Shown here: piece by piece, positions 4,254-53,515 of the stretch
Layout: each line of letters starts with the position of its first letter
How positions within the stretch are numbered: the stretch's first letter is position 1
Assembly (NCBI RefSeq): GCF_029714945.1
Contig: NZ_CP121634.1
Coordinates: forward strand, 8,763,001 to 8,827,000
Direction of reading: 5' to 3'
DNA from: Bradyrhizobium sp. CIAT3101
GTDB taxonomy: Bacteria > Pseudomonadota > Alphaproteobacteria > Rhizobiales > Xanthobacteraceae
DNA length: 64,000 bases
Translations under genes and position numbers: made by a program
Notes under the pieces: model-generated
What the model saw: the letters and a program-made list of their open reading frames with translations, nothing else
The model's database searches: none
What the model was told of the DNA's origin: nothing

Positions 4254-5975
<1,722 letters not shown>

Positions 5976-21400: not shown

Positions 21401-22703
21401 TCCTTGGGGCCGTGTCTATGCGAGCCTCATGACCAACGGCCGGCTTCACACCGTCACGACATTGTCCGTTCTGGCGGCGCATGCGGCAACGATAACGAGA
21501 TGGCAGCGCGATCTGAGCGCGACCGACCCGGCCAAGCAAACCAGGGCGGCCGAAGAGATGATATCCAGCGTCTCGACGGCGCCATGGTCGGAGCGGCGAG
21601 TTGCGGCTCTCCGATCGGCAGCGCAGGACGGCCGATACGACCGGCTGGCGCAACTCGTCGATCTTCACCGCATCGAGCTCACGTATGTCACCAACAAGAA
21701 AGGTGGCGATCAGATCCTCTCGGCGCTGGAAACCGAGGTGCGGGAAGTCCATGCCGCCATGGGTGAGCAGTACGCCCTCGCCGACTTCTCCATGGAGCTG
21801 ATCTCCGGCGGAGTGGACATCGCGGACATTCAGGGCGTCATCCGTAAAGCGGAGTCGAAGTTCGATCCGATGGCCGACGACATCTCGACGGCGCTGCGAG
21901 GAATTGTGGCCACATCGGCGATATCGCACGGCGTGGACGTGGAATTCTTTAACGCGATGGCTTTCGCCGGCATGCCCTCGGACATCGCCGAGTACATCCA
22001 GGCATCGTCGCGCGTCGGGCGCACGCACGTCGGCTTTTCGCTGCTGATTCCCATTCCGCAGACCCGGCGAGACCGGTTCATCGTGGAGGTCCATGAATCT
22101 TTCCATCGACTTCTTGAGAGGATGATTTCTCCGCCCGCGGTCGAACGATGGGCTGATCGCGCCATCAAGCGGACCATTCCTTCCATGGTGCAGACTTGGC
22201 TCGCCGGCGTGAGGCACAACGAACGCTTCCTTCCCGCGCCCGACGATCAGAAGGGCCCGGTGGCGCTTCCCTCCACGGTGGAGGCCGCAGCCAGGCTGCT
22301 GCGTTCCCGTCAGGACTTCGACGACTGCGTCCGCTTCGTCGGCGCTGCCATCGGCATCGGAGCTCCGATCGGATCGCCTACCAATCCAGAATATTACGGC
22401 AATCTCGCCCGTTCCGAGGTTGAGCGCATTCGGCAGGTGCTCGACAGCAAGAACTACACCGGCAGCCTCAACGATTTCTGGAAGGCCACCAACACCGACC
22501 TTATGAGGCCGATGACTAGCCTCCGGGACGTGGACGTTCAGGGACGGATCGAGGGCAGCCGGCGTTCGCAGACCAACAAGGCGATCACGGAAGAACAGTT
22601 GACCGACGCCATCTCCATGATTCGTAACCGCGGCGTCGCGCTCGGAAGGCGTGGCGCCTACAGCGAACTCGACAGCGGTGCAGACACCGGACAAAACTCA
22701 TGA
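18450..22703 (+). CDS. drmA: DISARM helicase DrmA
   Basis: A 1417-residue superfamily 2 helicase. Walker A is ATGGGKTE (K595), the DExH-type box is DEMH (D867-E868), and the C-terminal lobe has SAISHGVDVEFF and the arginine-finger motif ASSRVGRTHVG (around 1155-1185). A zinc-finger-like CPFC with a second Cys pair lies between the lobes (about 725-760). The N-terminal ~550 residues form the long leader typical of DrmA. Together with DrmB it binds and loads on incoming phage DNA. The start overlaps the DrmE stop by 8 bases and the stop overlaps drmB by 4. Identification is firm because of the neighbours: DrmA, DrmB and DrmC form the invariant DISARM core. Confidence 0.93.
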   Translation: MAEPTAVAGMSADDRQELKEAVCDAVLERTRQAVSGDGEFGRIVVGDRPARKLSSGFILPRLDENGDDESSDIRIATHGLDFRILLRTTGALAIQPVFSCYVRALPTTDELFARNGWLIPPPGFSQAAKTQIRDQIRQRAKAEIPQGASSSERFRIRSQISREVHLAMGVALPRGAPPPPIGDNPEIDDAQPDTGATDPLAPTGAERLRIPSAMSQRYDVPQKWIRLAVPLAPLTLPLPCDPAAWTTASLAYKQVLETAIKTSYRSWLATEEGKANAWRKLNPPSEAFWSRENWERFLTDARARPTSEADLLPDFDIQVLAQALPDPLVDGAFSVRIALENLQENDSAQESGLFGVALAVDIPVDALGPMRLERFRRSYHLAGFMTMPAIGVNGGVEDLGTFEGHRRLRTTWMPRFVLPRTKATEISDVVTQYEALSSADTEIVSLEALSAEMDRWIDRVARTTAITQPGEQGTEADEAAQRTRFEDDLQAWRREADRIRKGIRLVARSQQAWRSDAGSQAAIPYRAWLLLNRTFARANPSSQDQRPGWRLFQLAFVLAHVPTFASRVPAYADEFDAAFDEDAASLLYMATGGGKTEAFFGVLVFALFIDRLRGKARGVTAMMHYPLRLLTVQQAQRLARLLAKAEMVRRREGVGGAPFEVGFWVGSGNTPNATETRSGTLSDEMRCIPVVDSPRARDEQAILDGQEKADREYVTANAAWNKLPRCPFCSSARDTGLRFYPERHNRLGIVCFNTRCEWNVETTDRQGQAEPLPFLMIDTDIYRAAPSVLLGTIDKLALLGQNVSTIDKVAGMFGMARHVQGGPLGLLHMIGSPQANETPADYRRVAPSFRSGEEVFFDPFPSLIVQDEMHLLEESLGTFGGIFETALFQWLTRLALLLGNRVVEVPSAPGRPRLPHVVGATATAADVAKHTRALYQRRVVQFPHPGPALHEGFYTRMAAFDPAGDAAAARAASGITPRGLELAAPWGRVYASLMTNGRLHTVTTLSVLAAHAATITRWQRDLSATDPAKQTRAAEEMISSVSTAPWSERRVAALRSAAQDGRYDRLAQLVDLHRIELTYVTNKKGGDQILSALETEVREVHAAMGEQYALADFSMELISGGVDIADIQGVIRKAESKFDPMADDISTALRGIVATSAISHGVDVEFFNAMAFAGMPSDIAEYIQASSRVGRTHVGFSLLIPIPQTRRDRFIVEVHESFHRLLERMISPPAVERWADRAIKRTIPSMVQTWLAGVRHNERFLPAPDDQKGPVALPSTVEAAARLLRSRQDFDDCVRFVGAAIGIGAPIGSPTNPEYYGNLARSEVERIRQVLDSKNYTGSLNDFWKATNTDLMRPMTSLRDVDVQGRIEGSRRSQTNKAITEEQLTDAISMIRNRGVALGRRGAYSELDSGADTGQNS

Positions 22704-24925
22704 GCAAGCCCGATACGATGCAGAGGTCGCGTGGACAGCTTGCGACCGCCTACGCACCACACAGCCTCTTTACGTTCGAGGGGGGTTCCGGAGCATGCTT
22801 TGCGCTACCGAGCCCCGGCAATAGGACGGCTGGAGACGAGCTGCGCCCCAACACCCAGCGCATGATCTCCGAGCAGATCCAAGAATATTTCGAGGCTTGG
22901 GCAACGAGGGCCAGGCGAGGCACGAACCTCCGGCATGCCGTACCCTTGAACCTCGCGGTCGACGGACGCGTCATCAGCGACGACGCCGTTCGAGTACGCT
23001 CCGGCGATCTCGCGTTCCAGGTGCCGGATAGGGTTGGGTACGTTCCCTTCCCTCTCTCGTTCGTCTGCACTCGTTGCAAACTGCACCGGCACAGCGACCG
23101 GGTCGAGCGGCTCGCCGATGAAGCTGCCCGGTTCCGGAATGCATGCCCCTCCGGCGCCGACAGCTGCGCCAACGACTGGCAGCAGCTGGACGTCGTCTAC
23201 GCTCACTGGTCCGGAAACGTGGAGCCGATCACACCGAACTACCGCTCGTGGTATGACGGTGAGGTGCGCGACCTTGACCGCTGCACGTCGTGCGGCTCCG
23301 ATCGCTTCTTGCTTCACCGCCCTCCGGGGCGGCTCGGCAACTGGGAATTCCAGTGCGTAAACTGCAAGCTGCCAAGGCCCATGCAACAGAGGGACCTGAC
23401 GACACTCGAAGAGCTCGGCCCTCTACTTGCCCAAAATCAGGCGCTGCCGGCCGAGATCAATATGGAGCCCGTCTCCTACCGGGCCTCGGCCGCCTACTAC
23501 GTCCACGGCGACAGGCTCCTTGTGTTCGATCAGGAGCGGTACATCCAGCTGTTGGGATCGGCGCAAACGACGCTCCTGAGCGCATTTCTGTCTACCGAAT
23601 TCGGCTATCCCCCCACCAACCTCGACGACGCCGAAAAGGAAGCGCTGCTAGAGGCGGCCGGACAGTCTGCACAATGGGATATGTATCGGCGGGTGAGAGA
23701 CCTCATAGCGACACTCGAGCGAATGCCCCAGATCGATCCCGCGGCCATCGCCGCGCAGCGGGAAATGATCGCTCGGCAAGAAGCCGAGTGGAACGAGACG
23801 GTCTTCGCCGGACAGTTCGAGGCCGTGGAGGGCATCGATAGAGCCTGCCGCGAACGGGGCGACTATGTCCGGCGGTTTGATCCAGTCCGCATGGCGCTCG
23901 AACACAAGACCCTTACCGAAGAGCGTCTCCAAGGGCGCCAAATGCCTGACGGCAAGAGTGCCTCGGTCGACGTGACGATCCTCGACGACTTCCTGTTTCC
24001 GGACGATCTCGATGCGGACGCGCGCGCGCGACTGCTCGATCAGGTGCGCCTCCGTAAAGACCTGCTGGGCATCGAGGAAATGCGGCTCGTCCGCGACGTG
24101 CGGGTCTGCGAATACACTTTCGGCTACACGCGCACCAGCTCGACCCCCGTCGTCATGAGGGACAAGGCCGGATTGGCCGAAATGCCTGTGCGGCTGCGCT
24201 TGTTCGACAAGGTCCCGGTCGGGGATCGAGCTCTTCATCCCGTGCTCTGCCTCATCCAATCCAATGAGGGGTTGTACGTCCGCCTGAACGAAGCCTGCCT
24301 GCTCGAATGGCTCGAAGCGAACCAGATCCAGTTGCCGGCAGCCGATCCCGGCGTCCGTCTGGGAGGTCGCCTCATCGAGCAGTTTGCACGAATGGCCAAC
24401 GACGAGGACGTTCGCTTTTCGCGTTTCCTCGACGAGTATCGCCGCGAACGCAGCGTCCCCCGGCTGGCATACCCCTATGTCTACACGCTGCTGCACACGA
24501 TGGCCCACCATCTGCTGGGAATTTCTGCGTCGATGTCCGGATTGGACCTAGGATCGTTCGGCGAGCACATCTTTGTCCCTGACCTTGCCTTCCTAGTCTA
24601 TCGCCGCGGCATGACGATGGACCTAGGCAACCTGTCGTCGATGTGGCGCGATCGGGGTGACCCTGCATACGGCAACGAAGTGCTGGACCGGATGGTCGAT
24701 CCTGCGAGTCTCCGCTGCGGATCTGAGAGCGTGTGCAATCACCGAGGCGGAGCGTGCCCCGATTGCCTGCTCATCCCCGAGACCGCCTGCCTCACCCGCA
24801 ACGAACTGCTTTCCCGCTCCGTGCTCATCGGCCGCGGTTTCCCACGCTGGGACACCGAAGGACGCGCGCTCACGGGCTACTATGAGGTGGCGCGACGGCG
24901 AACGCGGGCGGACGCCACGCCATGA
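22700..24925 (+). CDS. drmB: DISARM protein DrmB (DUF1998)
   Basis: A 741-residue protein. Cys-pair motifs of zinc ribbons occur near residue 115 (CTRCKLHRH), near 195 (CTSCGS) and near 220 (CVNCKLP). The C-terminal DUF1998 region has the typical HTMAHHLLGISASMSGLDL block, then FVPDLAFLVYRR, and a Cys-rich end (CNHRGGACPDCLL). DrmB pairs with DrmA and stimulates its DNA handling. It is coupled to both neighbours through ATGA overlaps. The length is normal for the family and no frame damage is visible. Confidence 0.92.
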   Translation: MSKPDTMQRSRGQLATAYAPHSLFTFEGGSGACFALPSPGNRTAGDELRPNTQRMISEQIQEYFEAWATRARRGTNLRHAVPLNLAVDGRVISDDAVRVRSGDLAFQVPDRVGYVPFPLSFVCTRCKLHRHSDRVERLADEAARFRNACPSGADSCANDWQQLDVVYAHWSGNVEPITPNYRSWYDGEVRDLDRCTSCGSDRFLLHRPPGRLGNWEFQCVNCKLPRPMQQRDLTTLEELGPLLAQNQALPAEINMEPVSYRASAAYYVHGDRLLVFDQERYIQLLGSAQTTLLSAFLSTEFGYPPTNLDDAEKEALLEAAGQSAQWDMYRRVRDLIATLERMPQIDPAAIAAQREMIARQEAEWNETVFAGQFEAVEGIDRACRERGDYVRRFDPVRMALEHKTLTEERLQGRQMPDGKSASVDVTILDDFLFPDDLDADARARLLDQVRLRKDLLGIEEMRLVRDVRVCEYTFGYTRTSSTPVVMRDKAGLAEMPVRLRLFDKVPVGDRALHPVLCLIQSNEGLYVRLNEACLLEWLEANQIQLPAADPGVRLGGRLIEQFARMANDEDVRFSRFLDEYRRERSVPRLAYPYVYTLLHTMAHHLLGISASMSGLDLGSFGEHIFVPDLAFLVYRRGMTMDLGNLSSMWRDRGDPAYGNEVLDRMVDPASLRCGSESVCNHRGGACPDCLLIPETACLTRNELLSRSVLIGRGFPRWDTEGRALTGYYEVARRRTRADATP

Positions 24926-25749
24926 ACGCGACGATCGGAAGCTCGCTGTCGAGATCGCTGGTCAGCGAACTGGGCGACGACTGCGCGGCAGCCGCCCAGT
25001 TGGCCGCAGCCATCGCCGATCGTCCGGCCGGGACCATCGACAACGCCAGCTTGGGATTTATGCCGAGAGCCACGCTGTCTCGCGTCGCTGCCGATTTCGT
25101 CAGACGCGGTTGGCTGACGCCATCCGATTCCGGATGGAGGACCGGACCGACCCCTCTACCGCGTGCCGTCGTTTCCTTCTTGGAAGGTGCGGCCGCGATG
25201 CGCTCCCACGATGCGTTCCGGGAAACGGCCACCGCAATCGTGACCATGCCGCCCCCGCCGAGCGCCATCGCCGCGGCCCTTGCGCAGACTGGGATGGCCT
25301 ACGCTTCACTTGTTTCTACCAACGAAGCTCTGCGAGCGGTCGCAGACAAGGCCGTGGATACCTTCACGATCATGACGCCGTTCCTAAATCAGGAGGGACT
25401 TGAGTTCGCGCAGGAGCTTTTCGCCCGAACCAGAGCGCCGAAGAGGAGAATCATCGTCCGCACACCTGGTGATGCGACGCGCATTGTTCTCAACAACGCC
25501 GCGACCTTGGCAACGCTCGGCATCGAAGCGTTCGACTACACGATCGGAGTCGGAGAAGGCTATGAAACCTTTCATGCGAAGGCTGCGCTGGCCGACAATG
25601 AACTTGCCTACGCCGGTAGCGCGAACATAACGGTTTTCGCCAGGCACTCGATGGATCTTGGATTTTTGGTTGAAGGTCGGTCAGCAAGAGTGGTCGCAAA
25701 CGTGGTGCGCGCCGTCATCAAGATCGCTTCGCCCATACCTCTTGGCTGA
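24922..25749 (+). CDS. drmC: DISARM phospholipase D-like protein DrmC
   Basis: A 275-residue protein with one HKD motif, HAKAALADNELAYAGSAN (H218, K220, D225), as in phospholipase D-superfamily nucleases. One motif per chain implies a dimeric active site. The part before it (about residues 120-200) has the strand-helix pattern of the PLD fold. The N-terminal ~100 residues look like a small helical winged domain. DrmC is the third core gene of DISARM and may cut DNA, although it is dispensable in some systems. It is the last gene of the operon. Confidence 0.9.
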   Translation: MNATIGSSLSRSLVSELGDDCAAAAQLAAAIADRPAGTIDNASLGFMPRATLSRVAADFVRRGWLTPSDSGWRTGPTPLPRAVVSFLEGAAAMRSHDAFRETATAIVTMPPPPSAIAAALAQTGMAYASLVSTNEALRAVADKAVDTFTIMTPFLNQEGLEFAQELFARTRAPKRRIIVRTPGDATRIVLNNAATLATLGIEAFDYTIGVGEGYETFHAKAALADNELAYAGSANITVFARHSMDLGFLVEGRSARVVANVVRAVIKIASPIPLG

Positions 25750-30314: not shown

Positions 30315-32192
30315 ATGCGAACTGGTGAGGAGCGAGCGGTGACGATCGAGGGTTTGCAGAAGTGGAATGACGGCCCAGCCAAGGTGTTGGCAGTTGTCCT
30401 GCATGGCTGGGGCGGCAGCCCCAAAACCATGGAATATGTGATCGAAGCGACACAATTTGCCTTCGCGAGGCAGGGTGTCGACGTCTACGCGCCGCAATTG
30501 CCCTACGCCTACCGCTTGAGGTCCGTTCGCGCGGAGAAAATAATCATCGATCTCCTGGGTGCGATCAATAGCATCGTCGCCCAGCATGGAACATATAAGC
30601 GCATCGTCATTGTCGGCTTCAGCCTCGGCGGCGTATTCGCGCGGCGGCTGTTTCTGACCGCCGCGGACAATCCGCCGCATTTTCGGCGCGGGGCGACGTT
30701 CGAAGGGGCAGAGTCGCGGCCGTGGGCGTCACTGGTCGACCGCTTGGTGACCATCAGCGCGTTCAACCGCGGCTGGCAGGTCACGGGGCGCACCGACTGG
30801 TACTCGTCCTTTATTCTCAATCTGCTCGGCTTGATCGGTCATCTGTCGCCTGGCGACTGGCGCCCGACCCTCTTTGACGCGCGCCTTGGCGCGCCCTTCA
30901 TCGTGCAGACCCGCCTGCACTGGCTGGCCTACCGCCGATGGCATGCAGACATCAGGGCTAAGAGGAAGGCCGGGATCGATTTGGAGCCGCCAGTACCCCG
31001 CACCAAGGACCCGATCGTGGTTCAGCTGGTCGGCCGGCAAGACAGTTTCACGTCGCCGTTGGATCTGGTTGATATCTCGGTCGACGGCCATGACCCGTCG
31101 TCGCCGTCGCACGACCGGCGCTACTTCTATGTTGAAATGCTCAACACCAATCACGACCGTGCAACGGTCTTTGATGGTACGACCGACGGCATCGCGCGGC
31201 GCCAGCTGTTCATTGATTCGCTAACACTGCCCCGGCGAAATCTCGATAAAATCGCGAGCGACCCTTCATTGCTGGCGGATGACATTCCGCAGGTCGATCC
31301 AACCGTCACGGATGCGGTGTTCATTATGCACGGCATCCGTGACGACGGCTTCTGGACGCACCACATCGCCAAAGCCGTTCGCGAACGCGCGGCCACCAGC
31401 GCGCCCAGCATTCGGGCGCGCACGCCGAGTTACGGGTATTTCGCGATGCTGCCGTTCATATTGCCGTGGATCAGACGGCAGAAAGTTGAATGGCTGATGG
31501 ATCAGTACGTCGGCTGCAGGGCGCAATTTCCCAAGGCCGAGTTCAGCTATGTTGGCCATTCCAACGGAACCTATCTTGCCGCGCGCGCGCTCAAGGACTA
31601 TGCGGCGGCAAACTTCAAGCACGTGTTCTTCGCCGGCAGCGTTGTCAGACCGGATTACGACTGGATCAGCCTGGTGCGGGACCGCCGCGTCACCAAAATC
31701 CACAACGTTCGAGCTGCCGCCGATTGGGTTGTCGCGCTGTTGCCTAAGAGTGTCGAACGCTGGAAGAAGCTCGATCTCGGCGGCGCCGGGTTCGACGGCT
31801 TCCAGCAGGCGGGAAAGGACCCCAACGTCACGCAGCCAACCGATTTTGCCAACGGCACGCACAGTGCGGCGATTGCGGAAAGCCAGTGGCCGCATATTGC
31901 GGCGTTCATCGTCGATGGCACGGTGCCGCCCGCATTGCCGCAGACCGATTTCGTTCCTTCACAGGCCGCCTGGCTGAAGCCGCTCGCGAAATCCCAACTC
32001 GGATTGCCCCTACTTGTTCTCGTCTTCGGGATCGTGATCCCGGTGCTGTTGGCCATGCCGCTGTTCCGATACGCGACCGGAGTGGGGCCGGCATCGCCGC
32101 TGGATGATCTGAACGGCGGGGAAGCGATCGCGAAGACCTTCGTCTTCGTAGGCTATTTTCTGCTGTTGAAGTTCGTCATCACTCGGGTCTGA
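30315..32192 (+). CDS. Tandem alpha/beta-hydrolase with C-terminal membrane helices
   Basis: A 625-residue protein with two alpha/beta-hydrolase domains in one chain. Domain 1 (about 20-300) has the oxyanion HGWGG and the nucleophile elbow GFSLGG (S103). Domain 2 (about 335-540) has FIMHGIRDDG and GHSNGT (S416). After it come two hydrophobic segments (around 555-580, LPLLVLVFGIVIPVLLA, and 605-622, TFVFVGYFLLLKFVI), so the enzyme is anchored to the membrane by its C-terminus. The substrate is unknown; lipid or ester is likely from the fold. Two hydrolase units fused to a membrane anchor is not a standard metabolic enzyme. It stands 650 bp before the M3-CHAT-hydrolase operon and shares an upstream repeat with it. 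Confidence 0.75.
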   Translation: MRTGEERAVTIEGLQKWNDGPAKVLAVVLHGWGGSPKTMEYVIEATQFAFARQGVDVYAPQLPYAYRLRSVRAEKIIIDLLGAINSIVAQHGTYKRIVIVGFSLGGVFARRLFLTAADNPPHFRRGATFEGAESRPWASLVDRLVTISAFNRGWQVTGRTDWYSSFILNLLGLIGHLSPGDWRPTLFDARLGAPFIVQTRLHWLAYRRWHADIRAKRKAGIDLEPPVPRTKDPIVVQLVGRQDSFTSPLDLVDISVDGHDPSSPSHDRRYFYVEMLNTNHDRATVFDGTTDGIARRQLFIDSLTLPRRNLDKIASDPSLLADDIPQVDPTVTDAVFIMHGIRDDGFWTHHIAKAVRERAATSAPSIRARTPSYGYFAMLPFILPWIRRQKVEWLMDQYVGCRAQFPKAEFSYVGHSNGTYLAARALKDYAAANFKHVFFAGSVVRPDYDWISLVRDRRVTKIHNVRAAADWVVALLPKSVERWKKLDLGGAGFDGFQQAGKDPNVTQPTDFANGTHSAAIAESQWPHIAAFIVDGTVPPALPQTDFVPSQAAWLKPLAKSQLGLPLLVLVFGIVIPVLLAMPLFRYATGVGPASPLDDLNGGEAIAKTFVFVGYFLLLKFVITRV

Positions 32193-32858: not shown

Positions 32859-35321
32859 ATGTCGGAAACCCCTCAGCACAGCTCCCCACATGTCAACGAC
32901 AATGTGCTGCTACAGCAATGGCAGACCCCTTTCGGGGCACCTCCATTCGACAAAATCAGGCCGGAGCAGTTTCCGCCGGCCTTCGACCAAGCCTTTGCCG
33001 ACCACTCTGCCGAAATCGCGGCCATTGCCCATGATCCGGCAACGCCGGATTTCGCCAATACGATCACGGCGCTGGAGCGCTCCGGTAAGCTTTTGACCAA
33101 GGTCGCAGCTGTTTTCTACGACCTGGCCTCGGCGCATTCCAATCCGGCCATCCTGGAGATCGACAAGGATGTCTCCTTGCGCATGGCGCGGCACTGGAAT
33201 CCCATCATGATGAACGCCGTGCTGTTTGGCCGTATCGCCCAGCTGTACGAGAACCGCAGCGTGCTCAAGCTTTCGCCGGAGCAGCTTCGCCTGCTGGAGC
33301 GAATCCACACCCGCTTCCACCGCGCCGGCGCCGGCCTCTCCGACGAAGCCAAGACGCGAATGGCCGAGATCAACGAGCAGCTCGCCCAACACTGTACAAC
33401 CTTCAGCCATCATCTGCTCGGCGACGAGCAGAATTGGTTCATGGAGCTTGGCGAGGCCGACCGCCAGGGCCTGCCCGAGAACTTTATCGCGGCCGCCGCA
33501 GCCGCGGCGAAAGACCGTGGCTTGGCTGGAAAACCTATCGTCACGCTGTCGCGCTCCTCGGTCGAACCGTTCCTGAAGAGTTCGGGCCGCCGTGACCTGC
33601 GTGAGAAGGTCTATAAGGCTTTCACGGCGCGCGGCGACAACGGCAACGCCAACGACAACAACGCGACCATCGTCGAGATACTGAAGCTGCGGGAGGAGAG
33701 CGCCAATCTCCTGGGCTATCCCACCTTCGCGGCCTACCGGCTCGAGGACTCCATGGCCAAGACGCCCGACGCGGTGCAAGCCATCCTTGAGCAGGTCTGG
33801 AAGCCTGCCCAAGCGCGGGCGCTCGCCGACCGCAACGAAATGCAAGCACTGATCAAGAAGGAGGCCAATTTCGATCTCGCCCCTTGGGATTGGCGATACT
33901 ATGCGGAAAAGCTGCGGTCCCGCCGCGACAATTTCGACGAAGCCGCCATCAAGCCCTACTTAGCTCATCACAATATCCTCGCTGCCGCCTTCGACTGCGC
34001 CACGCGTCTCTTCGGCATTACCTTTGAGGAGCGCAAGGACGTGCCTGTGTGGCATCCGGACGTCCGGGTCTGGGAGGTCAGGGATCGCGACGGCAAGCAC
34101 AAGGCGCTTTTTTATGGCGACTACTACGCCCGTCCCTCAAAGCGCTCCGGCGCCTGGATGACGTCGCTGCGCGACCAGCAGAAGCTCGACGGCGAAGTCA
34201 CACCTCTCATCGTCAACGTTTGCAATTTTTCCAAGGGCGCGGACGGCCAGCCCTCGCTACTGTCGCCCGATGACGCCCGCACTCTCTTCCACGAGTTCGG
34301 CCACGGCCTGCAGGGAATGCTTTCGAACGTGACCTACCCCTCGCTGTCAGGCACCTCGGTGTTCACCGACTTCGTCGAACTTCCCTCGCAACTATACGAG
34401 CACTGGCTGGAGCAGCCAGAGGTCCTACGGCGATTCGCTCGGCACTACCAGACCGACGAGCCGCTCCCGGACGACTTGCTCCAGCGGTTCGCCGGTGCAC
34501 GCACATTCGATCAGGGATTTGCGACGCTCCAGTTCATTTCATCAGCGATGCTCGACCTCGAATTTCATAGCCGGCCTGCATCAGCCGCGCAGAACGTGCG
34601 TGCTTTCGAGAGGAAGGTGCTCGAGAAGATCGGCATGCCTCCAGAAATCGAGCCGCGATATCGGCCAACCCAGTTTTCCCACATCTTTGCCAGCAACCAT
34701 TACGCCGCCGGCTACTACAGCTACATGTGGTCTGAGGTGATGGATACCGACGCATTTGGCGCCTTCGAAGAGGCTGGCAATATCTTCGATCCCGAGATTG
34801 CAAAGCGCCTGTACGACGAGATCTACTCGTCGGGAGGCTCGGTCGATCCGGAAGAGGCATATATGGCTTTCCGTGGGCGCTCACCGGATACAGAAGCCCT
34901 CCTACGGCGCCGGGGACTCTTCGGCCGCGAGGGGAAGCGCAACCTCAATGCTTGGATTAGCAATCCGCGGCCGATGGTCGACGAACCCTTCCGCGTCTCA
35001 ATCAACATCGGCATCCCTCGGCATCTCGCAGATGCCTCGGTCGATTTTCCTGAACCGGACTGGGGCGAGACGGCGTCTGTAGATCTCATTGTCGCAGTCT
35101 CCTGTCTCGACTGCGATGTTGACCCAAGCTGGCAACCACTCACGCTTCCAAAGCGCGGCGACACTGAAACAGTCGACTTCTCTATTACGGCAAGAGGAGC
35201 CGGCAGTAACGAGTTTACGGTCAGAGTCTATCTCGCCAAGCAGATGATACAGCTCCAGTCGCTAAGCTTCACCGTCATGGTGGCGGAAGTGCAGCGACAA
35301 CGCACGGCGGCCATGCAATGA
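32859..35321 (+). CDS. M3 oligopeptidase fused to an extra C-terminal domain
   Basis: An 820-residue protein when started at ATG 32859 (MSETPQHSS), which matches M3 peptidases; an in-frame ATG at 32811 adds 16 residues. Residues 1 to about 685 are a complete M3-family (Dcp/PrlC-like) zinc oligopeptidase with HEFGH at 478-482 and a downstream Glu in FVELPSQLYEHW. Family members normally end where this one reads FRGRSPDTEALLRRRGLF. Here about 130 residues follow: strand-rich, starting LNAWISNPRPM, with SVDFPEPDWGET and FTVRVYLAKQMIQLQSLSF, resembling beta-sandwich domains I recall next to CHAT or TIR proteins. The stop overlaps the CHAT gene by 4 bases (ATGA). Either the fusion is functional or a host dcp recombined into an island gene. 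Confidence 0.85.
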   Translation: MSETPQHSSPHVNDNVLLQQWQTPFGAPPFDKIRPEQFPPAFDQAFADHSAEIAAIAHDPATPDFANTITALERSGKLLTKVAAVFYDLASAHSNPAILEIDKDVSLRMARHWNPIMMNAVLFGRIAQLYENRSVLKLSPEQLRLLERIHTRFHRAGAGLSDEAKTRMAEINEQLAQHCTTFSHHLLGDEQNWFMELGEADRQGLPENFIAAAAAAAKDRGLAGKPIVTLSRSSVEPFLKSSGRRDLREKVYKAFTARGDNGNANDNNATIVEILKLREESANLLGYPTFAAYRLEDSMAKTPDAVQAILEQVWKPAQARALADRNEMQALIKKEANFDLAPWDWRYYAEKLRSRRDNFDEAAIKPYLAHHNILAAAFDCATRLFGITFEERKDVPVWHPDVRVWEVRDRDGKHKALFYGDYYARPSKRSGAWMTSLRDQQKLDGEVTPLIVNVCNFSKGADGQPSLLSPDDARTLFHEFGHGLQGMLSNVTYPSLSGTSVFTDFVELPSQLYEHWLEQPEVLRRFARHYQTDEPLPDDLLQRFAGARTFDQGFATLQFISSAMLDLEFHSRPASAAQNVRAFERKVLEKIGMPPEIEPRYRPTQFSHIFASNHYAAGYYSYMWSEVMDTDAFGAFEEAGNIFDPEIAKRLYDEIYSSGGSVDPEEAYMAFRGRSPDTEALLRRRGLFGREGKRNLNAWISNPRPMVDEPFRVSINIGIPRHLADASVDFPEPDWGETASVDLIVAVSCLDCDVDPSWQPLTLPKRGDTETVDFSITARGAGSNEFTVRVYLAKQMIQLQSLSFTVMVAEVQRQRTAAMQ

Positions 35322-36628
35322 CCGAAACACCCCTCTCGATCACGCTGAAGGAAGACAATTCAGACGGTTTCAGCCTGCCGCGGGGCTACGACCATGAACT
35401 GGCTCTTGAGAAGGCCGGCGCGGTTGATATCCAGCAGAAGGACCGCTACTTCGAAATATATCTGATCAACAAGAGTTATCGCCGTAGCGAACCCGCTATC
35501 ATCAATCTGAGTCATGATAGCCTATTTGATGTCGTCCAAGAGTGTCGGAGCGCATGGGAGAAGGCGCTCAAAGACCTGGAGACCACGCGTGACCACCCTA
35601 GCGGCGCGGGGCAGATTCCGTATCACCCTTATGAGAACGAATGGCATAGGCCAGTTGAAGACGAGGCATTTCGCTCACTTGGTGCGAAGTTAGCTCTGGC
35701 CGGCAACGACCTGTTCGTCAGCATCTTTGAGCGAAGCGAGGACGGGAAGCTTGATAGAATTGCGGCCAATCTGCGTGAGATCGCGCGGACAGGGAGCAAC
35801 ATGCTGACGGTCAGTACCACGCATTTCCACATTCCATGGCGAATGATTTACACGCACCCTGACCCGGAGGGCGAACTTGCCTCCGACGGCAGCAATTTCG
35901 AGCCATCCGGATTCTGGGGGTTCCAACACGTTGTCGAGCAGTATCCCAACAAATACCCAATCAGCGACAGATTGAACGCTCGCGACGGCAAGCTTGACTT
36001 TGGCGCGGCACTGCATGAGCGCATTGATACAGAGTTTAAGGTCAACTGCATAAAGCGGCATCGCGACTTTATTCAGTCGAGCACGAACATGTTGACTTAC
36101 GCCGAATGGACGACAATCCTCGGGCTTGAAAAGGGACTATCTGCAACGCCGTTCGAGCAGCAGGTGGTTTACTTCCTTTGCCATGCAGATATGGCGAATA
36201 CTTCCAAGTCCCCGGAAATCGCTCCCACCTTGCATCTCGCCGATGGCGAAATAAACGTCGCCCGGTTCCGTCGGCTCAGGAAGAAGTTCGAGCCAAGCGG
36301 CCCGCTCATCTTCATCAACGCCTGTCGAGGTGGTCAGCTCGGCACATTGGTACGCGAAAATTTCTCCTTTGCATCGCAATTTCTCGAACAAGGCGCCGCC
36401 TGTGTGGTCGGACCACAGATTGAAGTCCCGGCTGTCTTCGCCGGCGAGTTCGGCAACCGCTTTTTCACGGAATTCTTGCAGCGCACCGACCCACCGCCAC
36501 GAGCTGGCATGGTTCTGCGTGAACTCACACGACAGATGTGGAAACGCAACAATCCGTTTGGCTTGGTCTATAGCCTGTATGCAGGAGCTGATTGTCATAT
36601 CCGCTGGGCGGAGAAGGTTACTTCATGA
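35318..36628 (+). CDS. CHAT-domain caspase-like protease
   Basis: A 436-residue protein. The C-terminal half (about 150-430) is a CHAT (caspase HetF associated with TPRs) peptidase with the catalytic His in VYFLCHAD (H289) and the catalytic Cys in FINACRGG (C336), followed by the usual GACCVVGPQIEVP strand and a typical ending (FGLVYSLYAG). The N-terminal ~100 residues form a separate domain with no match I know. CHAT proteases are clan CD cysteine peptidases; in bacteria some activate gasdermins or cut partners on infection. No gasdermin-like gene is seen, but the gene is locked between an M3 peptidase and a hydrolase through 4-base overlaps on both sides. Confidence 0.88.
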   Translation: MTETPLSITLKEDNSDGFSLPRGYDHELALEKAGAVDIQQKDRYFEIYLINKSYRRSEPAIINLSHDSLFDVVQECRSAWEKALKDLETTRDHPSGAGQIPYHPYENEWHRPVEDEAFRSLGAKLALAGNDLFVSIFERSEDGKLDRIAANLREIARTGSNMLTVSTTHFHIPWRMIYTHPDPEGELASDGSNFEPSGFWGFQHVVEQYPNKYPISDRLNARDGKLDFGAALHERIDTEFKVNCIKRHRDFIQSSTNMLTYAEWTTILGLEKGLSATPFEQQVVYFLCHADMANTSKSPEIAPTLHLADGEINVARFRRLRKKFEPSGPLIFINACRGGQLGTLVRENFSFASQFLEQGAACVVGPQIEVPAVFAGEFGNRFFTEFLQRTDPPPRAGMVLRELTRQMWKRNNPFGLVYSLYAGADCHIRWAEKVTS

Positions 36629-37656
36629 CCGATCTGACGCTGGACGGCGCGAACTTCTCCAAGTTCGCGATGCTATACCTCGACGAGACCGGCCGCTTCA
36701 TCGAGATTGGTGACCCTAATCGCGACGAGGCCCGATCGGTCGAGACAGATGAGTTGGAGAGGTTTCTGAAGCGCACGATCTCATTGCCAAAGGGCGTTAC
36801 CGACGTCTTTGTCTGGGTGCACGGCTGGCAAAACGACGAGTTGCGCTCGGTATCCACAGCCAAGCGGTTATTCGCTAATCTCGAGGATTGGTTCCAGCGT
36901 GAATCGGCCCGCTATCGCGCCCTCGGCACAGTTGTGCCTGGATTCGTCGCGGTTCATTGGCCCTCGAGCTCGCTACCTACGCTCTCGGGGTACAAGAAAA
37001 TCCGTGATCGAGCAAAGCGTATGACCACACAAGGCGAGGCGGAGTTCTTCCTAGCTTCGCTGCTCGGCTATCTCGATCGAGATAACCAACGCACGCCTCA
37101 ACGCAAACTACTTAAGGCCAAGGACGGGTTCTATGTGCATTGTCTGGGCCACTCGTTCGGTGGCCGGTTCCTGGCTGCAGCGATCAAGGCGGCAGCGACG
37201 CCGGTACCACAAGAACGGAAAGTACTGGCGGCACATCGCGAGACCGGCTCGGCCTTCAACGTAGACAGTCTCTGCGTGCTGCAGATGGCTGCCGGCTGCA
37301 GGGCATTCGAGAGCGAGTTTGACGCGCTGTTGAAGGGGCCCATATGTGGACCCATCGTGCTAACAAACTCATCGTCAGATAGAGCTCTGTGCACTTGGCA
37401 TTCGCTTAGCGAGGGCGAACCTGGCATCGGATGCAGCGGTGCAATTGAGCCGCGCGACCGCATCGGCTCAATCAACTTGCTCTCGATCGATACACCATAT
37501 CCGGCCACTGCCTTCAATAAAGACATCACCAATGTGAACGCGTCCGAGTATTTTATCGGAGGCGGATGGATCGAGGGATCACATTCACAGTTTTGGCACA
37601 CCGAAACTATGCACCTCATCGCAAGCTTAGTCGAACAGGTCAGATCGGCGTCCTGA
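36625..37656 (+). CDS. Alpha/beta serine hydrolase of the CHAT operon
   Basis: A 343-residue protein starting at ATG 36625 (MTDLTLDGANF), which overlaps the CHAT stop as ATGA; an upstream in-frame start at 36592 is unlikely. Visible motifs are the strand VFVWVHGWQND, which gives the oxyanion hole, and the nucleophile elbow GHSFGG (S177); HSQFWHTETM near the end may hold the catalytic His. The fold suggests a lipase or esterase. No signal peptide or membrane segment is visible, so it acts in the cytosol. Coupled translation with a caspase-like protease suggests that it is the proteolytically controlled effector, but that is inference. Confidence 0.82.
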   Translation: MTDLTLDGANFSKFAMLYLDETGRFIEIGDPNRDEARSVETDELERFLKRTISLPKGVTDVFVWVHGWQNDELRSVSTAKRLFANLEDWFQRESARYRALGTVVPGFVAVHWPSSSLPTLSGYKKIRDRAKRMTTQGEAEFFLASLLGYLDRDNQRTPQRKLLKAKDGFYVHCLGHSFGGRFLAAAIKAAATPVPQERKVLAAHRETGSAFNVDSLCVLQMAAGCRAFESEFDALLKGPICGPIVLTNSSSDRALCTWHSLSEGEPGIGCSGAIEPRDRIGSINLLSIDTPYPATAFNKDITNVNASEYFIGGGWIEGSHSQFWHTETMHLIASLVEQVRSAS

Positions 37657-43653: not shown

Positions 43654-46290
43654 ATGACCATGGGTCACATTCTCCACAGCGTCCTCGTCCAGGGGCGTCT
43701 TGCTTTCGCGATGCGGCGCGCAGCGGCGGCCCGTGGCCGAGAACTCGGCCTTCAGATTATGACGCCCTCCTTGCTGGCAGCGCGCCTTGCCGGCGGGCTG
43801 CTGCGGCCAGCATCGCGCGATAGCATTGAGAATGGCATTCGCGCCGCTCTGGGCGAGTCCCACCTGCTCGAGGACATGGCACCCATCGCTGGACTTCCCG
43901 GAATAACCCGTGCCCTACTTCGAAGTTTGCAGAATGTTTGGCGTTCGGGGTTCAACCTGCGGTCGGGCCCGAATGCGCAACATCCTCGCATCCGAGATCT
44001 GGCACGGATTGAAGATTCCGTGCGGCGTCACCTGCAAGCCGGAGAACGTCTCCCATCCGATCTGTGTGATCTAGCCCGCACCAGGATTGGCGACGCCCCT
44101 CGCGTGGTCGGATCGCTCCGCATCGAGGGCATGCACGCCATGGATCCCATTTGGCGTCCTCTGATCAATGACCTGCTTGGTGTCATTCCGATTGAGTGGG
44201 AGGCGCCCGCCCATTGCGATTCTGACTGGTTCAACGGGACACAGCGGCGGGCCGCCGCTGGAGATGGAAGACGGCGCGCCGTGAGTTGCGCCGATCCGCG
44301 ACATGAGGCCCTCGAGGCCATGCGATGGGCCCGAGAAGTCCTCGCTTCCGGTTGCGCCCACGCATCCGACATCGCAATCGCCGCGACGGCGCCAAGTTCT
44401 TGGGATGACTATGTGCTCTCGTTTGCTGCCGCCTCTGGCTTACCCGTGTGTTTCATGCACGGCCGACCGGCACTTGCGACACGGGACGGGCAACGGTGTG
44501 CGGCTCTTGCTGATGTGCTGCAGGGCGGCTTAAGTCAGGCCCGCGTGCGACGCCTCATTGCTCTGGTTGCCAACCAGGGAACGGCGCTGGACGACCTTCC
44601 CGATGTCTTGCCTGTGTCTAGCGAAGCCGCCCTCTCGACTGCTTCCGATTGGGAGCGAGCCCTCGCACCTCATCCTGCAATCGCATCGATCCTGATGCCC
44701 CTCCTCAAGCTGATCGGAAACGGCCCAAATGCCGCCGAACAGGCGGGCAGTCTCCTGCTCCGCGGCCGCTCGCGCTGGCTTTGGGATGAAGCATTACGGT
44801 CGGCACCGGCTTCAGCACTGATGTTCTCGCTTCAGAGCTTGCGTGTCGCCGAAGAACGGGATCCTGCGAATTCCGTCACCTGGTGCACGGTCGATCAGCT
44901 TGCGGCAGCACCGCGCCGCTTCGTATGGCTTATGGGCCTGACGACGGGTGGATGGCCCCGGACGAGCGGACTGGATCCGATACTCCCCAGTTACGTGATC
45001 CCGACCGCATTGGTCGACCCGGATCCATTGGAGGCAGCCGATCGCCGGAGCCTCGCCATCGTTCTGGCCTCCGCCGAAGAGGTCGTTCTTTCCACCGGCA
45101 GGCTCACCAGCGAAGGCAAGCGCGTTGGCCCGAGCGCCTTGATGGACTTGGCCGGGGATGTCGACATCCTTTCCCGCGACCGGCAGTCTCATCATGCGCT
45201 GACTGAAGCCGACCGCCTCCTTGCTCGGCCGCAGGATAGACGCGCGGATCAGGTTATTTGCTCAGGAATGGCCGCCTGGTCCAATTGGGACTCGCGAACC
45301 CTCACGCCTCACGACGGACTGGTGCGGCGAGATCATCCCTTGCTGTTGACGCTATTATCCAGACCTCAATCGCCCACGTCACTGTCCCGACTGCTCCGCG
45401 ATCCCCTCGCTTACGTCTGGTATTACGCCCTGGGTTGGCGTGATTTGATCCACAAAGAACGTGCGCTTGTGCTGCCAGCGGATGACATGGGCCGGCTGGT
45501 TCACGAACTCCTCCGCCGCGCCGTCGATCAACTCGAACCCCAGCCCGGGTTCACCGTGGCTGCCAGGCACGAAATCGAGGAGGCTCTCGCGATCGCATCC
45601 GCTCACGTGACGGAGAGCTGGCCTTTGGCCACAAACGTGCCACCGCCGGTCCTTTGGACCAATACAGTGAGGCAGGCGGCCGAAATGAGCTTGGCTGGCT
45701 TGACCTTCGAAAACTTTTCGGAGGCCGGAACGCGCTCATGGACTGAAGTACCTTTCGGCGGCGAGGTTCGCCAGGCAGATCCGCCAGCTTCCCTCCCATG
45801 GGACCCATCCCGACCCGTCATCCTGCCAGGTACGGACATTCGCATTCGCGGAACGATAGATCGGCTCGATCTGAGGGCGGCCGCTGCGGCTGTGCGGGTC
45901 ACTGACTACAAGACTGGTCAGAAGCCAAAGGCGCCCAACCTTATGAACGTCGACGGCGGTGCCGAGCTGCAGCGCGTGCTCTATTCCCTGGCGTGCCGTC
46001 AATTGCTGCCAGACACAAAGCCTCTGATAGCCCGTCTGATCTTTCTTCGTCCCCCGATCATCGCCTCAACGCTCAAGAACCCGGACGGGTTCGTCGATCT
46101 GGTTACGGCCTGGGTGGTGCTGGCGCGTAGCACCCTTGAAGCTGGCATCGTCTATCCAGGCGTGGCGGCAATGCCCGACCGCTTCGGCAAGATCGCCCTT
46201 CCAGCAACGAGCACCTATGTCGATCGCAAAAGCAGCGCCATTCGTGAAGCAGCCGGCAGGGAACTCACTGCCTATTGGGGGACGAAGTGA
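43654..46290 (+). CDS. AddB-like protein with PD-(D/E)XK nuclease domain
   Basis: An 878-residue protein. The C-terminal third is a RecB-type nuclease: GRLVHELLRRAV (about 612), GTIDRLDL (about 733), DYKTGQ (about 752) and ELQRVLYSLA, the GxxxH / GxxDRxD / DYKT / QxxxY set. The N-terminal two-thirds resemble the inactivated helicase of AddB, with no Walker A visible. It would work as a heterodimer with the AddA-like product of the next gene, whose GTG start overlaps this stop (GTGA). The pair degrades linear DNA ends. Whether it is the housekeeping AddAB or a divergent island copy cannot be decided here; the island setting suggests the latter. Confidence 0.8.
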   Translation: MTMGHILHSVLVQGRLAFAMRRAAAARGRELGLQIMTPSLLAARLAGGLLRPASRDSIENGIRAALGESHLLEDMAPIAGLPGITRALLRSLQNVWRSGFNLRSGPNAQHPRIRDLARIEDSVRRHLQAGERLPSDLCDLARTRIGDAPRVVGSLRIEGMHAMDPIWRPLINDLLGVIPIEWEAPAHCDSDWFNGTQRRAAAGDGRRRAVSCADPRHEALEAMRWAREVLASGCAHASDIAIAATAPSSWDDYVLSFAAASGLPVCFMHGRPALATRDGQRCAALADVLQGGLSQARVRRLIALVANQGTALDDLPDVLPVSSEAALSTASDWERALAPHPAIASILMPLLKLIGNGPNAAEQAGSLLLRGRSRWLWDEALRSAPASALMFSLQSLRVAEERDPANSVTWCTVDQLAAAPRRFVWLMGLTTGGWPRTSGLDPILPSYVIPTALVDPDPLEAADRRSLAIVLASAEEVVLSTGRLTSEGKRVGPSALMDLAGDVDILSRDRQSHHALTEADRLLARPQDRRADQVICSGMAAWSNWDSRTLTPHDGLVRRDHPLLLTLLSRPQSPTSLSRLLRDPLAYVWYYALGWRDLIHKERALVLPADDMGRLVHELLRRAVDQLEPQPGFTVAARHEIEEALAIASAHVTESWPLATNVPPPVLWTNTVRQAAEMSLAGLTFENFSEAGTRSWTEVPFGGEVRQADPPASLPWDPSRPVILPGTDIRIRGTIDRLDLRAAAAAVRVTDYKTGQKPKAPNLMNVDGGAELQRVLYSLACRQLLPDTKPLIARLIFLRPPIIASTLKNPDGFVDLVTAWVVLARSTLEAGIVYPGVAAMPDRFGKIALPATSTYVDRKSSAIREAAGRELTAYWGTK

Positions 46291-49200
46291 AGTCGACCGC
46301 TGATGACAGGGAGCGCGGCCGCGCACTCACCGATCTTGGCGCAACGCTTCTGATCGAGGCGTCGGCCGGCACGGGCAAGACTTCGTTGCTTGCGGGGCGG
46401 GTCGCGATGCTACTTGCTGCCGGTCGCAGTCCCCCGAGCATCGCCGCGATCACTTTTACGGAGCGCGCTGCGGCGGAGCTTCGCGCGCGCGTCGACAAAT
46501 TCGCGGGCATGCTCGTTAATGGCGCTATTCCCAAGGACTTGGAGCCAGCGTTTCGCCGACGCCCTCTGAGCGAGGAGCAAGCCGAGGCGCTCTTGAGCTC
46601 GCGACCGCGGCTTGGTGAAATCACGGCGTCGACGATCCACAGCTTCTGTCTCGACGTTCTCCAAAGCTATGCGATCGAGGCCGAAATTGACCCGGGCGCG
46701 GTCGTCATGGACGCGGACCAGACTGACCTCGCTTTCACCTCCATATTCGACACCTGGCTCAACGAGCGGCTCGGTTATGATGCACAGCCAAACGACCCCA
46801 TCGTCGTCATGGCGGCTCACGATCCGACACTGGCCGTGAAAACCCTCAACTCACTGGCCAAGTTTCGCCGCTCCTATCCCGAAGCTCGCCCCTTGGCTCC
46901 GCCGCGTTATGCCGACACCATCCATGATCTCATGGATGCCGTTGGCGACTTTCGGCGTTGGATCGCTCGCGTGGCCGCGCCGAATGACGCTGTTGAGGAC
47001 GTGGGTTCACTTGAAGCTCTGGTCAATGTGCTCGAGCCGGCATCCTCAGGCGCGCTCGACTTTTCGCAGCTGTGGACGCTCGTGCATCCCCAGAGTGCTG
47101 CCCTGCTCCCCCGTGGAGGGCACACACTCGCCCGCTACAAGAGCCGCATCAATCAATGGAACCGGTCCGCAGGCAAAGCCGACGCTGGCCGGCTCTCGGC
47201 GGAATGCCAACAGCACTATGAGCGGTGCGCCGCTCTCTTTGCCGATTCGCTGGGAGCGATTGCCGACACGCTCTTGGCCCGCTTCTTCGGCGAGACAGAC
47301 ACGCTTATCGATGCCTTCGAGGCGTTCAAGCGCAATGCCGCGGTCCTCGATTTCGACGATATCCTTATTCGAACCCGCAATCTGCTGCGCTCGAATGAGA
47401 AGGTACGCGCAGCCGTCGCCGCGCGTTACCAGCACATTCTCATTGATGAATATCAAGACACCGACCCTCTGCAGTCAGAAATACTCTTTCTCATCGCTGG
47501 CGAACCAGGCACCTCGGACTCGTGGGACACTCGCAAACTTCGACCCGGAGCGCTTTTCATAGTCGGAGATCCCAAACAGGCGATTTACCGCTTTCGCCGT
47601 GCCGATCTCAAATCGTACCTGCGGGCACGCTCGGCCATAGAAACCCAATATCCGGGCAATGTGCTCCAAATCACGGCCAATTTCCGTTCCGGGGAGAGCA
47701 TCCTCAAGCACGTTGATCGGACCTTCGAGGACCGGCTGGCAAGGCAGCAAGGTGGCTATGCTTCACTCAAATCGACCGTCGTCGAGGATCCAGGCCGGAT
47801 TCAGAGTATCGCAAAACTGACCTATGACGTTCCCGCGGACAGCTTCGTAAATCCGATCCGCGACCTCGAAGCGAAAGCCGTTGCCGATCTTTGCGCCAGC
47901 CTGGTCGGCAATGTGTGGGTACGCCGCTCTAGCGGCGAGATCGCGCGCGCCGAGCCGGGCGACATCGCGCTTTTGGTCCCTCGGCGGACGCAGCTCTGGC
48001 GATACGAACGAGCGCTCGAGGACAAGGGCCTGCCGGTCGCTTCTCAGGCGGGAAAGAATCTTTATCGGCGGCAAGAAACCCAGGATTTCGTCGCTCTCGT
48101 GCGTGCATTAGCCGACAGCCGCGATACCCTCGCTCTCGGAGCGGTTCTCCGTGGCCCCCTCGTTGGCATCACCGAGCAGGAGCTTCTCAATATAACCCAT
48201 GCCTTGCAAGAGAAAGGTGAAAGCACCTTCCTCAACCTGCATACAAATCTGGCACATGTGCAGCACCCCGTCGCGCATCATGTGATGAGCGGCCTGCAGG
48301 ACCTGTGGCGCAAGCGACGCGGAACGACCCCCCACGCGCTGCTGTCGGAAGCCGTTGAACTGCTTCGCATTGTTCCGAATACTGCCGGTCGCCGTTCCGA
48401 TCAACAAGCCCGCGCCCTTGGTAACATCAGTGTCCTCCTCGAGCGCACGCGCAGCTACCACGTCCGCGGCCTCAAGCAACTCGCTATCGATCTCAGCTCC
48501 GAATGGGACTCGGAACTGGCGACCGACGAAGCTCCGCCCGACTATCAAGGTAGCAGCATCGACATCGTGACCGTCCATAAGGCAAAGGGTCTCGAATGGC
48601 CGATCGTCATCCCGGTCAACTTTTTGACGATGCCGGAGAGCGACGACCATTTCTTCCATCGCTCCGACGACAACAGCGTGCATTGGACGCTTGGAGACAT
48701 CATCTCGAGCACCCTTGGATCAGCGATCGCGGCCGACCGGGCGGAATCGGCGGACGAGCGAGAGCGGTTGCTTTACGTCGCTTGCACGCGCGCTCTTGAT
48801 CTTCTCGTCCTTCCCGCACCCAGCTGGACACCCGACGCTGGCTGGGCCAAGTTCTTCGATCTGGGTCAATCGGAGCTTGCCGAGATAGAACCTCCACCGC
48901 CTCAACGTCGGGAACCGCGACTTGCCGCCGCCCCGAACATTCAATCAGCCTCGGTCTTTGCCAATGAGCGCGAGCGCATCGAGCAGTCGAATCCGAAGAT
49001 CACCTGGCGCCGCCCCAGTCGTGCCGACATCGATCGGGAGTTGCTTGATCGCGCAACGATTGACGTTGGCGCAAGCGAGGGAAGCGCAGACCTTGGAACC
49101 TTCATCATCGGTGCCGGCGCGCTACGCGGGATTGTCCTCCATAAATTGATGGAGGAATTGCTTACTGGATTGGCTGCTCCTGACCTTGCGGATCTGGCCG

Positions 49201-53236: not shown

Positions 53237-53515
53237 ATCTTTTCCCCTAACATCCGGCATCCGCCGCGGGCCTTGCGAACGACAGCGACGCGTGCCCCGG
53301 CATCGGCATCGGCGCGAGAAGTGCGCTGCGGCTTGGCTACCGAATCCTTGCGAGCATTGACCGGCTCTCGGCGATCGTTGAAATTAAGCTTGCGGCCGCC
53401 TCAGGAAAGCGGTTGCATTAAGACCGACTAGCACGGAATCATCACCAAGATCACTGATTCGACGCTTTGTTGGCACGACTATTCCATGGCTGCGCGGGGA
53501 AAATTCTAGTCGCGA

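What the first reader, a model, noticed from the sequence alone, without database searches (positions are those of the whole stretch)
32859..37656. Translationally coupled M3 peptidase / CHAT protease / serine hydrolase triad
Seen: three genes joined by two ATGA overlaps, encoding an M3 zinc oligopeptidase with HEFGH, a CHAT protease with H289 and C336, and an alpha/beta hydrolase with GHSFGG. Known: CHAT proteases act as infection-triggered caspases in several bacterial systems. Inference: the CHAT protease may activate the hydrolase, or be regulated by the peptidase, giving a protease-gated lipase-type death system. I know of no named defence system with this set, and it lies inside a defence island.
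Basis: partly seen in the sequence, partly recalled or inferred. Interest (0 to 1): 0.85.

Follow-up and report, generated by a model that had tools for sequence, protein, structure and literature searches.

The report
Caspase-hydrolase module with swappable front gene
A bacterial defence island holds a three-gene set in which a caspase-like protease and an esterase-like hydrolase follow an exchangeable front part joined to a common adaptor; here that front part is a copied housekeeping peptidase.

Summary
Eighteen proteins share this adaptor (41-100% identity), but their N-termini fall into about ten unrelated classes: M3, patatin, MFS transporter, TPR, weak NB-ARC and TIR, DnaJ/pentapeptide and unknowns. 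M3 (2 of 18) is therefore one exchangeable module, not a fixed partner. It derives from a dcp of the same genus; the genome keeps its ordinary dcp. CHAT and hydrolase recur together: the 3 plasmid records hit by the hydrolase are all among the 7 hit by CHAT, with the genes side by side, and more distant hydrolase relatives lie within two genes of a CHAT, C25 or S8 protease in 11 of 12 loci opened. Best reading: a protease-gated killing pair fed by a swappable sensor or bait; effector cargo is the main rival. Caspase/hydrolase pairs and constant-plus-variable caspase systems are published (PMC7159879), so this is a new variant of a known kind.

The parts
32859..34934 (+). Exchangeable N-terminal module, residues 1-692: complete Dcp-type M3 peptidase, HEFGH at residues 478-482 (34290-34304)
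   Evidence: Pfam PF01432 2.5e-126; 1y79 match residues 16-687; placed among genus Dcps
34935..35321 (+). Adaptor, residues 693-820 plus stop: Ig/FN3-like beta-sandwich
   Evidence: AF2 mean pLDDT 91.4, all beta; shared by 18 proteins with unrelated N-termini; related to the domain that precedes CHAT in distant relatives, hhalign prob 95.8, E 7.6e-9
35318..36628 (+). CHAT (caspase-like) protease, 436 aa; H289 codon 36182-36184, C336 codon 36323-36325
   Evidence: Pfam CHAT 3.1e-8; Foldseek top hits Csx29/TPR-CHAT and separase; dyad invariant
36625..37656 (+). Alpha/beta-hydrolase, 343 aa; S177 (37153-37155), D252 (37378-37380), H320 (37582-37584); triad assignment inferred
   Evidence: S, D and H invariant in 6 aligned sequences; beside CHAT in other loci
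35318..35321 (+). ATGA overlap, M3-adaptor / CHAT
   Evidence: sequence
36625..36628 (+). ATGA overlap, CHAT / hydrolase
   Evidence: sequence; 4-nt CHAT/hydrolase overlaps also in L096 and L097

Best explanation
A protease-gated killing module with a constant output and an exchangeable input. Output: the CHAT protease and the alpha/beta-hydrolase; the protease, once switched on, processes or otherwise activates the hydrolase, which damages lipids or other esters and stops the infected cell. Input: the first gene, an N-terminal module that differs between loci, carried on a common Ig-like adaptor that docks on CHAT. In this genome the module is a captured copy of the genus's housekeeping peptidyl-dipeptidase Dcp, acting as sensor or bait. 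Shown: gene anatomy, adaptor homology, module exchange, recurrence of the CHAT-hydrolase pair, origin of the module from a genus dcp. Inferred: docking on CHAT, activation of the hydrolase, the sensor/bait role, defence.
For: Adaptor shared by 18 proteins with about ten unrelated N-terminal classes; the adaptors of P0097 and P0098 are 88% identical with unrelated N-termini. In ten of 30 distant CHAT loci (L002, L004, L005, L007-L013) a related domain lies before CHAT in the same polypeptide. Streptomyces plasmids L096 and L097 have first-gene/CHAT/hydrolase in the window's order; the first gene in L096 is a STAND-type ATPase annotated as TPR protein (Pfam AAA_16 2.3e-9), and P0112 carries a weak NB-ARC plus TPR, both typical sensor parts. 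Hamadaea L006: hydrolase (40% id), an unknown gene and CHAT, the last two overlapping by 4 nt. Hydrolase relatives lie within two genes of a CHAT, C25 or S8 protease in 11 of 12 opened plasmid loci. The fused M3 has changed 42 of 468 genus-invariant sites against 0-12 for orthologues, with HEFGH kept.
Against: Whether the hydrolase accompanies the close CHAT relatives P0005-P0064 was not tested: no protein search was left and their contigs were not read. It is found in 6 of 33 distant loci L002-L034, in 3 of 7 CHAT-bearing plasmid records, and not detected in 5 of the 10 adaptor-CHAT loci (L002, L004, L005, L007, L010; some of these stretches are short). TIR, patatin and PLD-like modules are better known as effectors than as sensors. 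At the C-terminus of the Streptomyces and Hamadaea first genes the adaptor is not significant (hhalign prob 16.6; L006 E 0.24). As a single query the window's adaptor reaches the CHAT fusions only marginally (L004 E 0.025). No cleavage site or gating insert was identified. The fused M3 is under purifying selection against the host dcp (pairwise dN/dS 0.15), which a pure bait would not need. No experiment.
Confidence: 0.45

Rival explanations
1. Effector cargo: the N-terminal module is the weapon (peptidase, patatin, TIR, PLD and so on), held by the adaptor on CHAT and released or activated by CHAT cleavage, in parallel with the hydrolase.
For: Patatin, weak TIR and PLD-like modules; in L008, L009, L011 and L013 a hydrolase itself occupies the N-terminal position before the adaptor; PMC7159879 reads variable domains fused to a constant caspase as effectors; M3 zinc motif kept.
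Against: MFS transporter, TPR, DnaJ/pentapeptide and NB-ARC modules are poor toxins; a cytosolic dipeptidase copy 82% identical to the host's own would add little toxicity. Both points are inference.
Confidence: 0.27
2. One reading: M3 is an enzymatic partner that regulates CHAT or clears its peptide products.
For: Fusion and gene overlap place it with CHAT; HEFGH intact.
Against: M3 in 2 of 18 adaptor proteins, replaced elsewhere by unrelated modules; not found in loci L002-L034.
Confidence: 0.1
3. Not antiviral: a stress, self-recognition or symbiosis-related cell-death circuit that happens to lie among defence genes.
For: Rare and patchy; hydrolase/protease pairs occur on rhizobial plasmids; the systems in PMC7159879 are linked to a multicellular habit.
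Against: Flanked by DISARM-like genes, Gabija and PDC-S73; module exchange is typical of conflict systems.
Confidence: 0.1

Closest known systems
Caspase plus alpha/beta-hydrolase pair of VMAP (vWA-MoxR) ternary systems (Kaur et al. 2020, PMC7159879; passages and section 9 part 1 of 2 seen)
   Same: A caspase-superfamily peptidase with a neighbouring alpha/beta-hydrolase gene; variable partner domains; metallopeptidases rarely among them (section 12)
   Different: No vWA or MoxR match among the window ORFs scanned with Pfam; the variable module sits on an Ig-like adaptor in a separate gene
EACC1 two-gene system (same paper, section 33 read)
   Same: Constant caspase with a highly variable repertoire of attached domains (peptidases, STAND, repeats)
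   Different: Variable domains there are fused C-terminally to the caspase and the 5' gene is a single-TM EACC1 protein; here the CHAT protein carries none and the variable domain is on the adaptor of the 5' gene
Canu, caspase-nuclease defence (PMC12799240; abstract and passages seen)
   Same: Caspase-family protease gating a downstream enzyme; Ig-like and TPR domains in variable loci; defence islands
   Different: Output is an MBL-fold pro-nuclease; here it is an alpha/beta-hydrolase, and gating is not shown
Craspase Csx29 TPR-CHAT
   Same: Closest solved fold to the CHAT model (7zoq, Foldseek E 1.5e-13, TM 0.48 over the query)
   Different: No CRISPR component among the ten neighbours scanned with Pfam; no TPR match in this CHAT protein
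Peptidyl-dipeptidase Dcp (M3)
   Same: Whole fold and HEFGH
   Different: Extra C-terminal adaptor, second copy beside the host dcp, many changes at conserved sites

Membership tests
VMAP ternary caspase/hydrolase system | caspase with neighbouring alpha/beta-hydrolase gene | tested here: met
VMAP ternary caspase/hydrolase system | adjacent MoxR ATPase and vWA genes, VMAP-C domain | tested here: not met
   no such Pfam match in P0001-P0004 or the ten other window ORFs scanned; the remaining ORFs were not scanned with Pfam
EACC1 system | 5' gene with one conserved TM helix (EACC1) | tested here: not met
   the 5' gene is Dcp plus an all-beta domain; no dedicated TM prediction was run
EACC1 system | variable domain fused C-terminally to the caspase | tested here: not met
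   the 436-aa protein ends shortly after the CHAT match
Canu | caspase-family protease | tested here: met
Canu | MBL-fold nuclease partner | tested here: not met
   GHSFG hydrolase, no MBL match
Canu | protease cleaves and activates its partner | not testable with these tools
   needs a biochemical assay
CHAT protease | caspase-like fold with His/Cys dyad | tested here: met
Dcp / M3 peptidase | M3 fold with HExxH zinc motif | tested here: met
Known defence system in PADLOC | match of one of the three proteins to a PADLOC model | tested here: not met
   no family at E 0.01

The most novel reading that the evidence does not exclude
A bacterial counterpart of the plant integrated-decoy receptor: a caspase-hydrolase death pair reads the state of a captured copy of a housekeeping protein (here Dcp; elsewhere perhaps transporters or DnaJ) or of a sensor ATPase, presented on a common Ig-like adaptor, so that attack on or binding to the bait triggers the pair. 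Swapping the bait re-aims the system.
Probability: 0.2. Interest if true: 0.88.

Novelty: new variant of a known kind. Interest (0 to 1): 0.62.

Why it matters
It defines a small common domain that marks interchangeable front modules linked to a CHAT protease, so it can be used to mine new sensors or effectors. It also adds comparative evidence that protease-gated enzymes beyond nucleases, here an alpha/beta-hydrolase found next to CHAT, C25 or S8 proteases, may be a recurrent design. The captured dcp makes the question 'sensor, bait or cargo?' directly testable by module swaps.

Tried and rejected
M3 as a conserved member of the set: rejected. Upstream two-hydrolase gene 30315-32192 as a member: its protein finds no relative in L001-L034, so left out. 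Close relatives of CHAT in related genomes: at order level 3 of 396 other genomes gave only weak partial matches, in the genus 22 of 264 others gave only 24-33% matches, at class level 0 of 384 others. The hydrolase is found in 0 of 396 other order genomes. Viral contigs and phages: none. Host-copy origin of the MFS module: the own-genome homologues of P0103 over its transporter part are only 26-37% identical, so near-copy capture is shown for dcp alone. A second adaptor copy in this genome: none convincing (one further place at E 0.015 with four stops). Promoter scan: 0 sites, uninformative. Hydrolase in the PDB by sequence: none.

Limits: TIR in P0111 (24.4 bits, cut-off 28) and NB-ARC in P0112 (22.9, cut-off 23.5) are below Pfam's cut-offs. 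'PLD-like' for P0097, 'helical' for P0101/P0102/P0107, 'caspase-like' for the first gene of L097 and 'gingipain-like' for the last genes of L107 and L110 are my own readings without a Pfam hit. P0106 and P0110 look truncated at the N-terminus and are classed by similarity to fuller rows; P0098 and P0108 are close variants. The two adaptor searches only admit proteins within a length range set by the query. Of the 26 plasmid records, 12 were opened; several are near-duplicates (Rhizobium). In H19 and H37 one gene lies between hydrolase and CHAT; in H22 no protease is annotated and its unannotated upstream neighbour has no Pfam hit. The tree's root is a midpoint and treekit warned of long branches among the outgroup rows.

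Full report
Observation. H478 of HEFGH, H289, C336 and S177 are all at the stated positions. The region is a defence island: DISARM-like genes, Gabija and a PDC-S73-like gene.

What was missed. The match to solved Dcp ends at residue 687. Residues 693-820 are predicted with high confidence as an all-beta sandwich (mean pLDDT 91.4) whose structural neighbours include Ig/FN3-like domains.

The adaptor is common, the module in front of it is not. Two protein-database searches with the adaptor alone (10 hits, 14) give, with the window protein, 18 distinct proteins. Their adaptors are 41-100% identical in all pairs, yet the N-termini fall into about ten classes without a blastp match at 1e-3 between classes, except a short TPR stretch shared by two of them: M3 (2), TPR (3), NB-ARC/TPR (1), patatin (2), MFS (3), helical (3), pentapeptide/DnaJ (1), TIR (1), PLD-like (1), unknown (1). 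Pfam support is; TIR and NB-ARC are below cut-off, PLD-like and helical are my readings. P0097 and P0098 have 88% identical adaptors with unrelated N-termini. Six of the 17 other adaptor proteins have exactly the longest-contig length of one of the 90 CHAT relatives; lengths shifted by 1-100 give 0.085 on average, 1 at most. This indicates linkage, but those contigs were not read.

Deep relatives. A scan of named genomes gave 30 distant CHAT loci. In ten of them (L002, L004, L005, L007-L013) a related domain lies before CHAT in one polypeptide. A profile of the window-type adaptor reaches 9 of 16 test proteins at E below 0.005, against a best value of 0.72 for the reversed sequences; among the misses are L008 (0.095), L006 (0.24) and L012 (0.42). 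Profile-profile comparison with ten of these domains gives 95.8% probability, E 7.6e-9. The hydrolase finds relatives in 6 of the 33 loci L002-L034 (L003, L006, L008, L009, L011, L012), so it is not detected in most of the distant CHAT loci. In L008, L009 and L011 hydrolase, adaptor and CHAT are one protein. In Hamadaea (L006) hydrolase (40% identity), an unknown protein and CHAT are separate genes, the last two overlapping by 4 nt.

The recurrent pair. Searching plasmids with CHAT hits 7 records, with the hydrolase 3; all 3 are among the 7 and the two genes are neighbours. Two Streptomyces plasmids show first-gene/CHAT/hydrolase in the window's order with 4-nt CHAT/hydrolase overlaps; the first gene is a STAND-type ATPase annotated as TPR protein in one and an unknown protein in the other. 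In Embleya an ATPase-like region is fused to CHAT (my reading). A beta-domain at the C-terminus of the Streptomyces first genes is suggestive only. A more distant hydrolase (from L012) hits 26 plasmid records; of the 12 opened, 9 have a protease gene immediately adjacent (S8 in six, C25 in two, CHAT in one), 2 have CHAT with one gene between and 1 has no annotated protease. A hydrolase kept next to proteases of different families is what one expects of a protease-gated enzyme, the design shown for nucleases in PMC12799240 (abstract and passages). For the close CHAT relatives P0005-P0064 the presence of the hydrolase was not tested.

Origin of the M3 module. The genome has its own dcp elsewhere, 82% identical to the module; all 19 same-genus genomes in the comparison, the own one included, carry one. 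The fused copy and its metagenomic relative P0096 form a fully supported pair (100/100), sister to 12 genus Dcps (97/99) inside the genus clade. It keeps HEFGH and is under purifying selection (pairwise dN/dS 0.15 against the host dcp), but it has changed 42 of 468 genus-invariant sites (P0096 33; orthologues, each left out in turn, 0-12) and 8 of 182 family-invariant sites (P0096 7; orthologues 0-2), among them the histidine three residues after HEFGH, now Q485. So a whole dcp was captured within the genus and then evolved under a different constraint. The one other module examined for such an origin, the MFS module P0103, is not a near copy of anything in this genome.

Mechanism. Inferred: the adaptor docks the module on CHAT; a signal read by the module switches CHAT on; CHAT activates the hydrolase; the cell is stopped. 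STAND/TPR modules favour a sensor role; patatin, TIR and PLD-like modules, and the hydrolase taking the module's place in fused forms, favour cargo. I put sensor/bait ahead of cargo, but not strongly.

What is known. PMC7159879 (passages, section 9 part 1, sections 12 and 33 seen) reports that caspases of VMAP systems always have a neighbouring alpha/beta-hydrolase, and describes the EACC1 system with a constant caspase and up to 50 variable domains. Passages of PMC8195603 and PMC10907252 describe adaptor domains and variable sensors in related conflict systems; the latter argues that variable parts may be sensors. The listings of six paper searches in the open-access library show nothing that names this set. 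The feature is therefore a new variant: CHAT plus hydrolase with an exchangeable module on a separate Ig-like adaptor gene.

Noticed in passing
30315-32192 +: 625-aa protein with two alpha/beta-hydrolase-like halves (GFSLGG, GHSNG) and a hydrophobic C-terminus, upstream of the module; no relative in the CHAT loci searched
   Followed up: partly
14064-25749 +: DISARM-like cluster: type II-like methyltransferase, a 901-aa protein without a Pfam or PADLOC match, DrmA, DrmB, weak DrmC
   Followed up: partly
49632-53260 -: Gabija GajA/GajB pair with very strong PADLOC matches
   Followed up: partly
53516-55810 +: Mrr endonuclease domain fused to nSTAND3, PADLOC PDC-S73
   Followed up: partly
43654-49592 +: PD-(D/E)XK protein and UvrD/PD-(D/E)XK helicase pair, AddBA-like by my reading
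   Followed up: no
4311-5975 + and 6457-8052 -: Cpn60-family gene and a sigma-54 gene near the window's left end
   Followed up: no
L103, L104, L106, L108, L109, L111: Rhizobial and Rhodococcus plasmids carry a two-gene S8 protease / alpha/beta-hydrolase pair with no CHAT annotated in the stretch opened
   Followed up: partly
L107:4857-10264, L110:4302-9901: Four-gene sets hydrolase / unknown / CHAT / gingipain-like protein (last label is my reading), last two overlapping by 4 nt
   Followed up: partly
L013:3287-6691: LCAT-like hydrolase, adaptor-like domain and CHAT fused in one protein of a Chloroflexi MAG
   Followed up: partly
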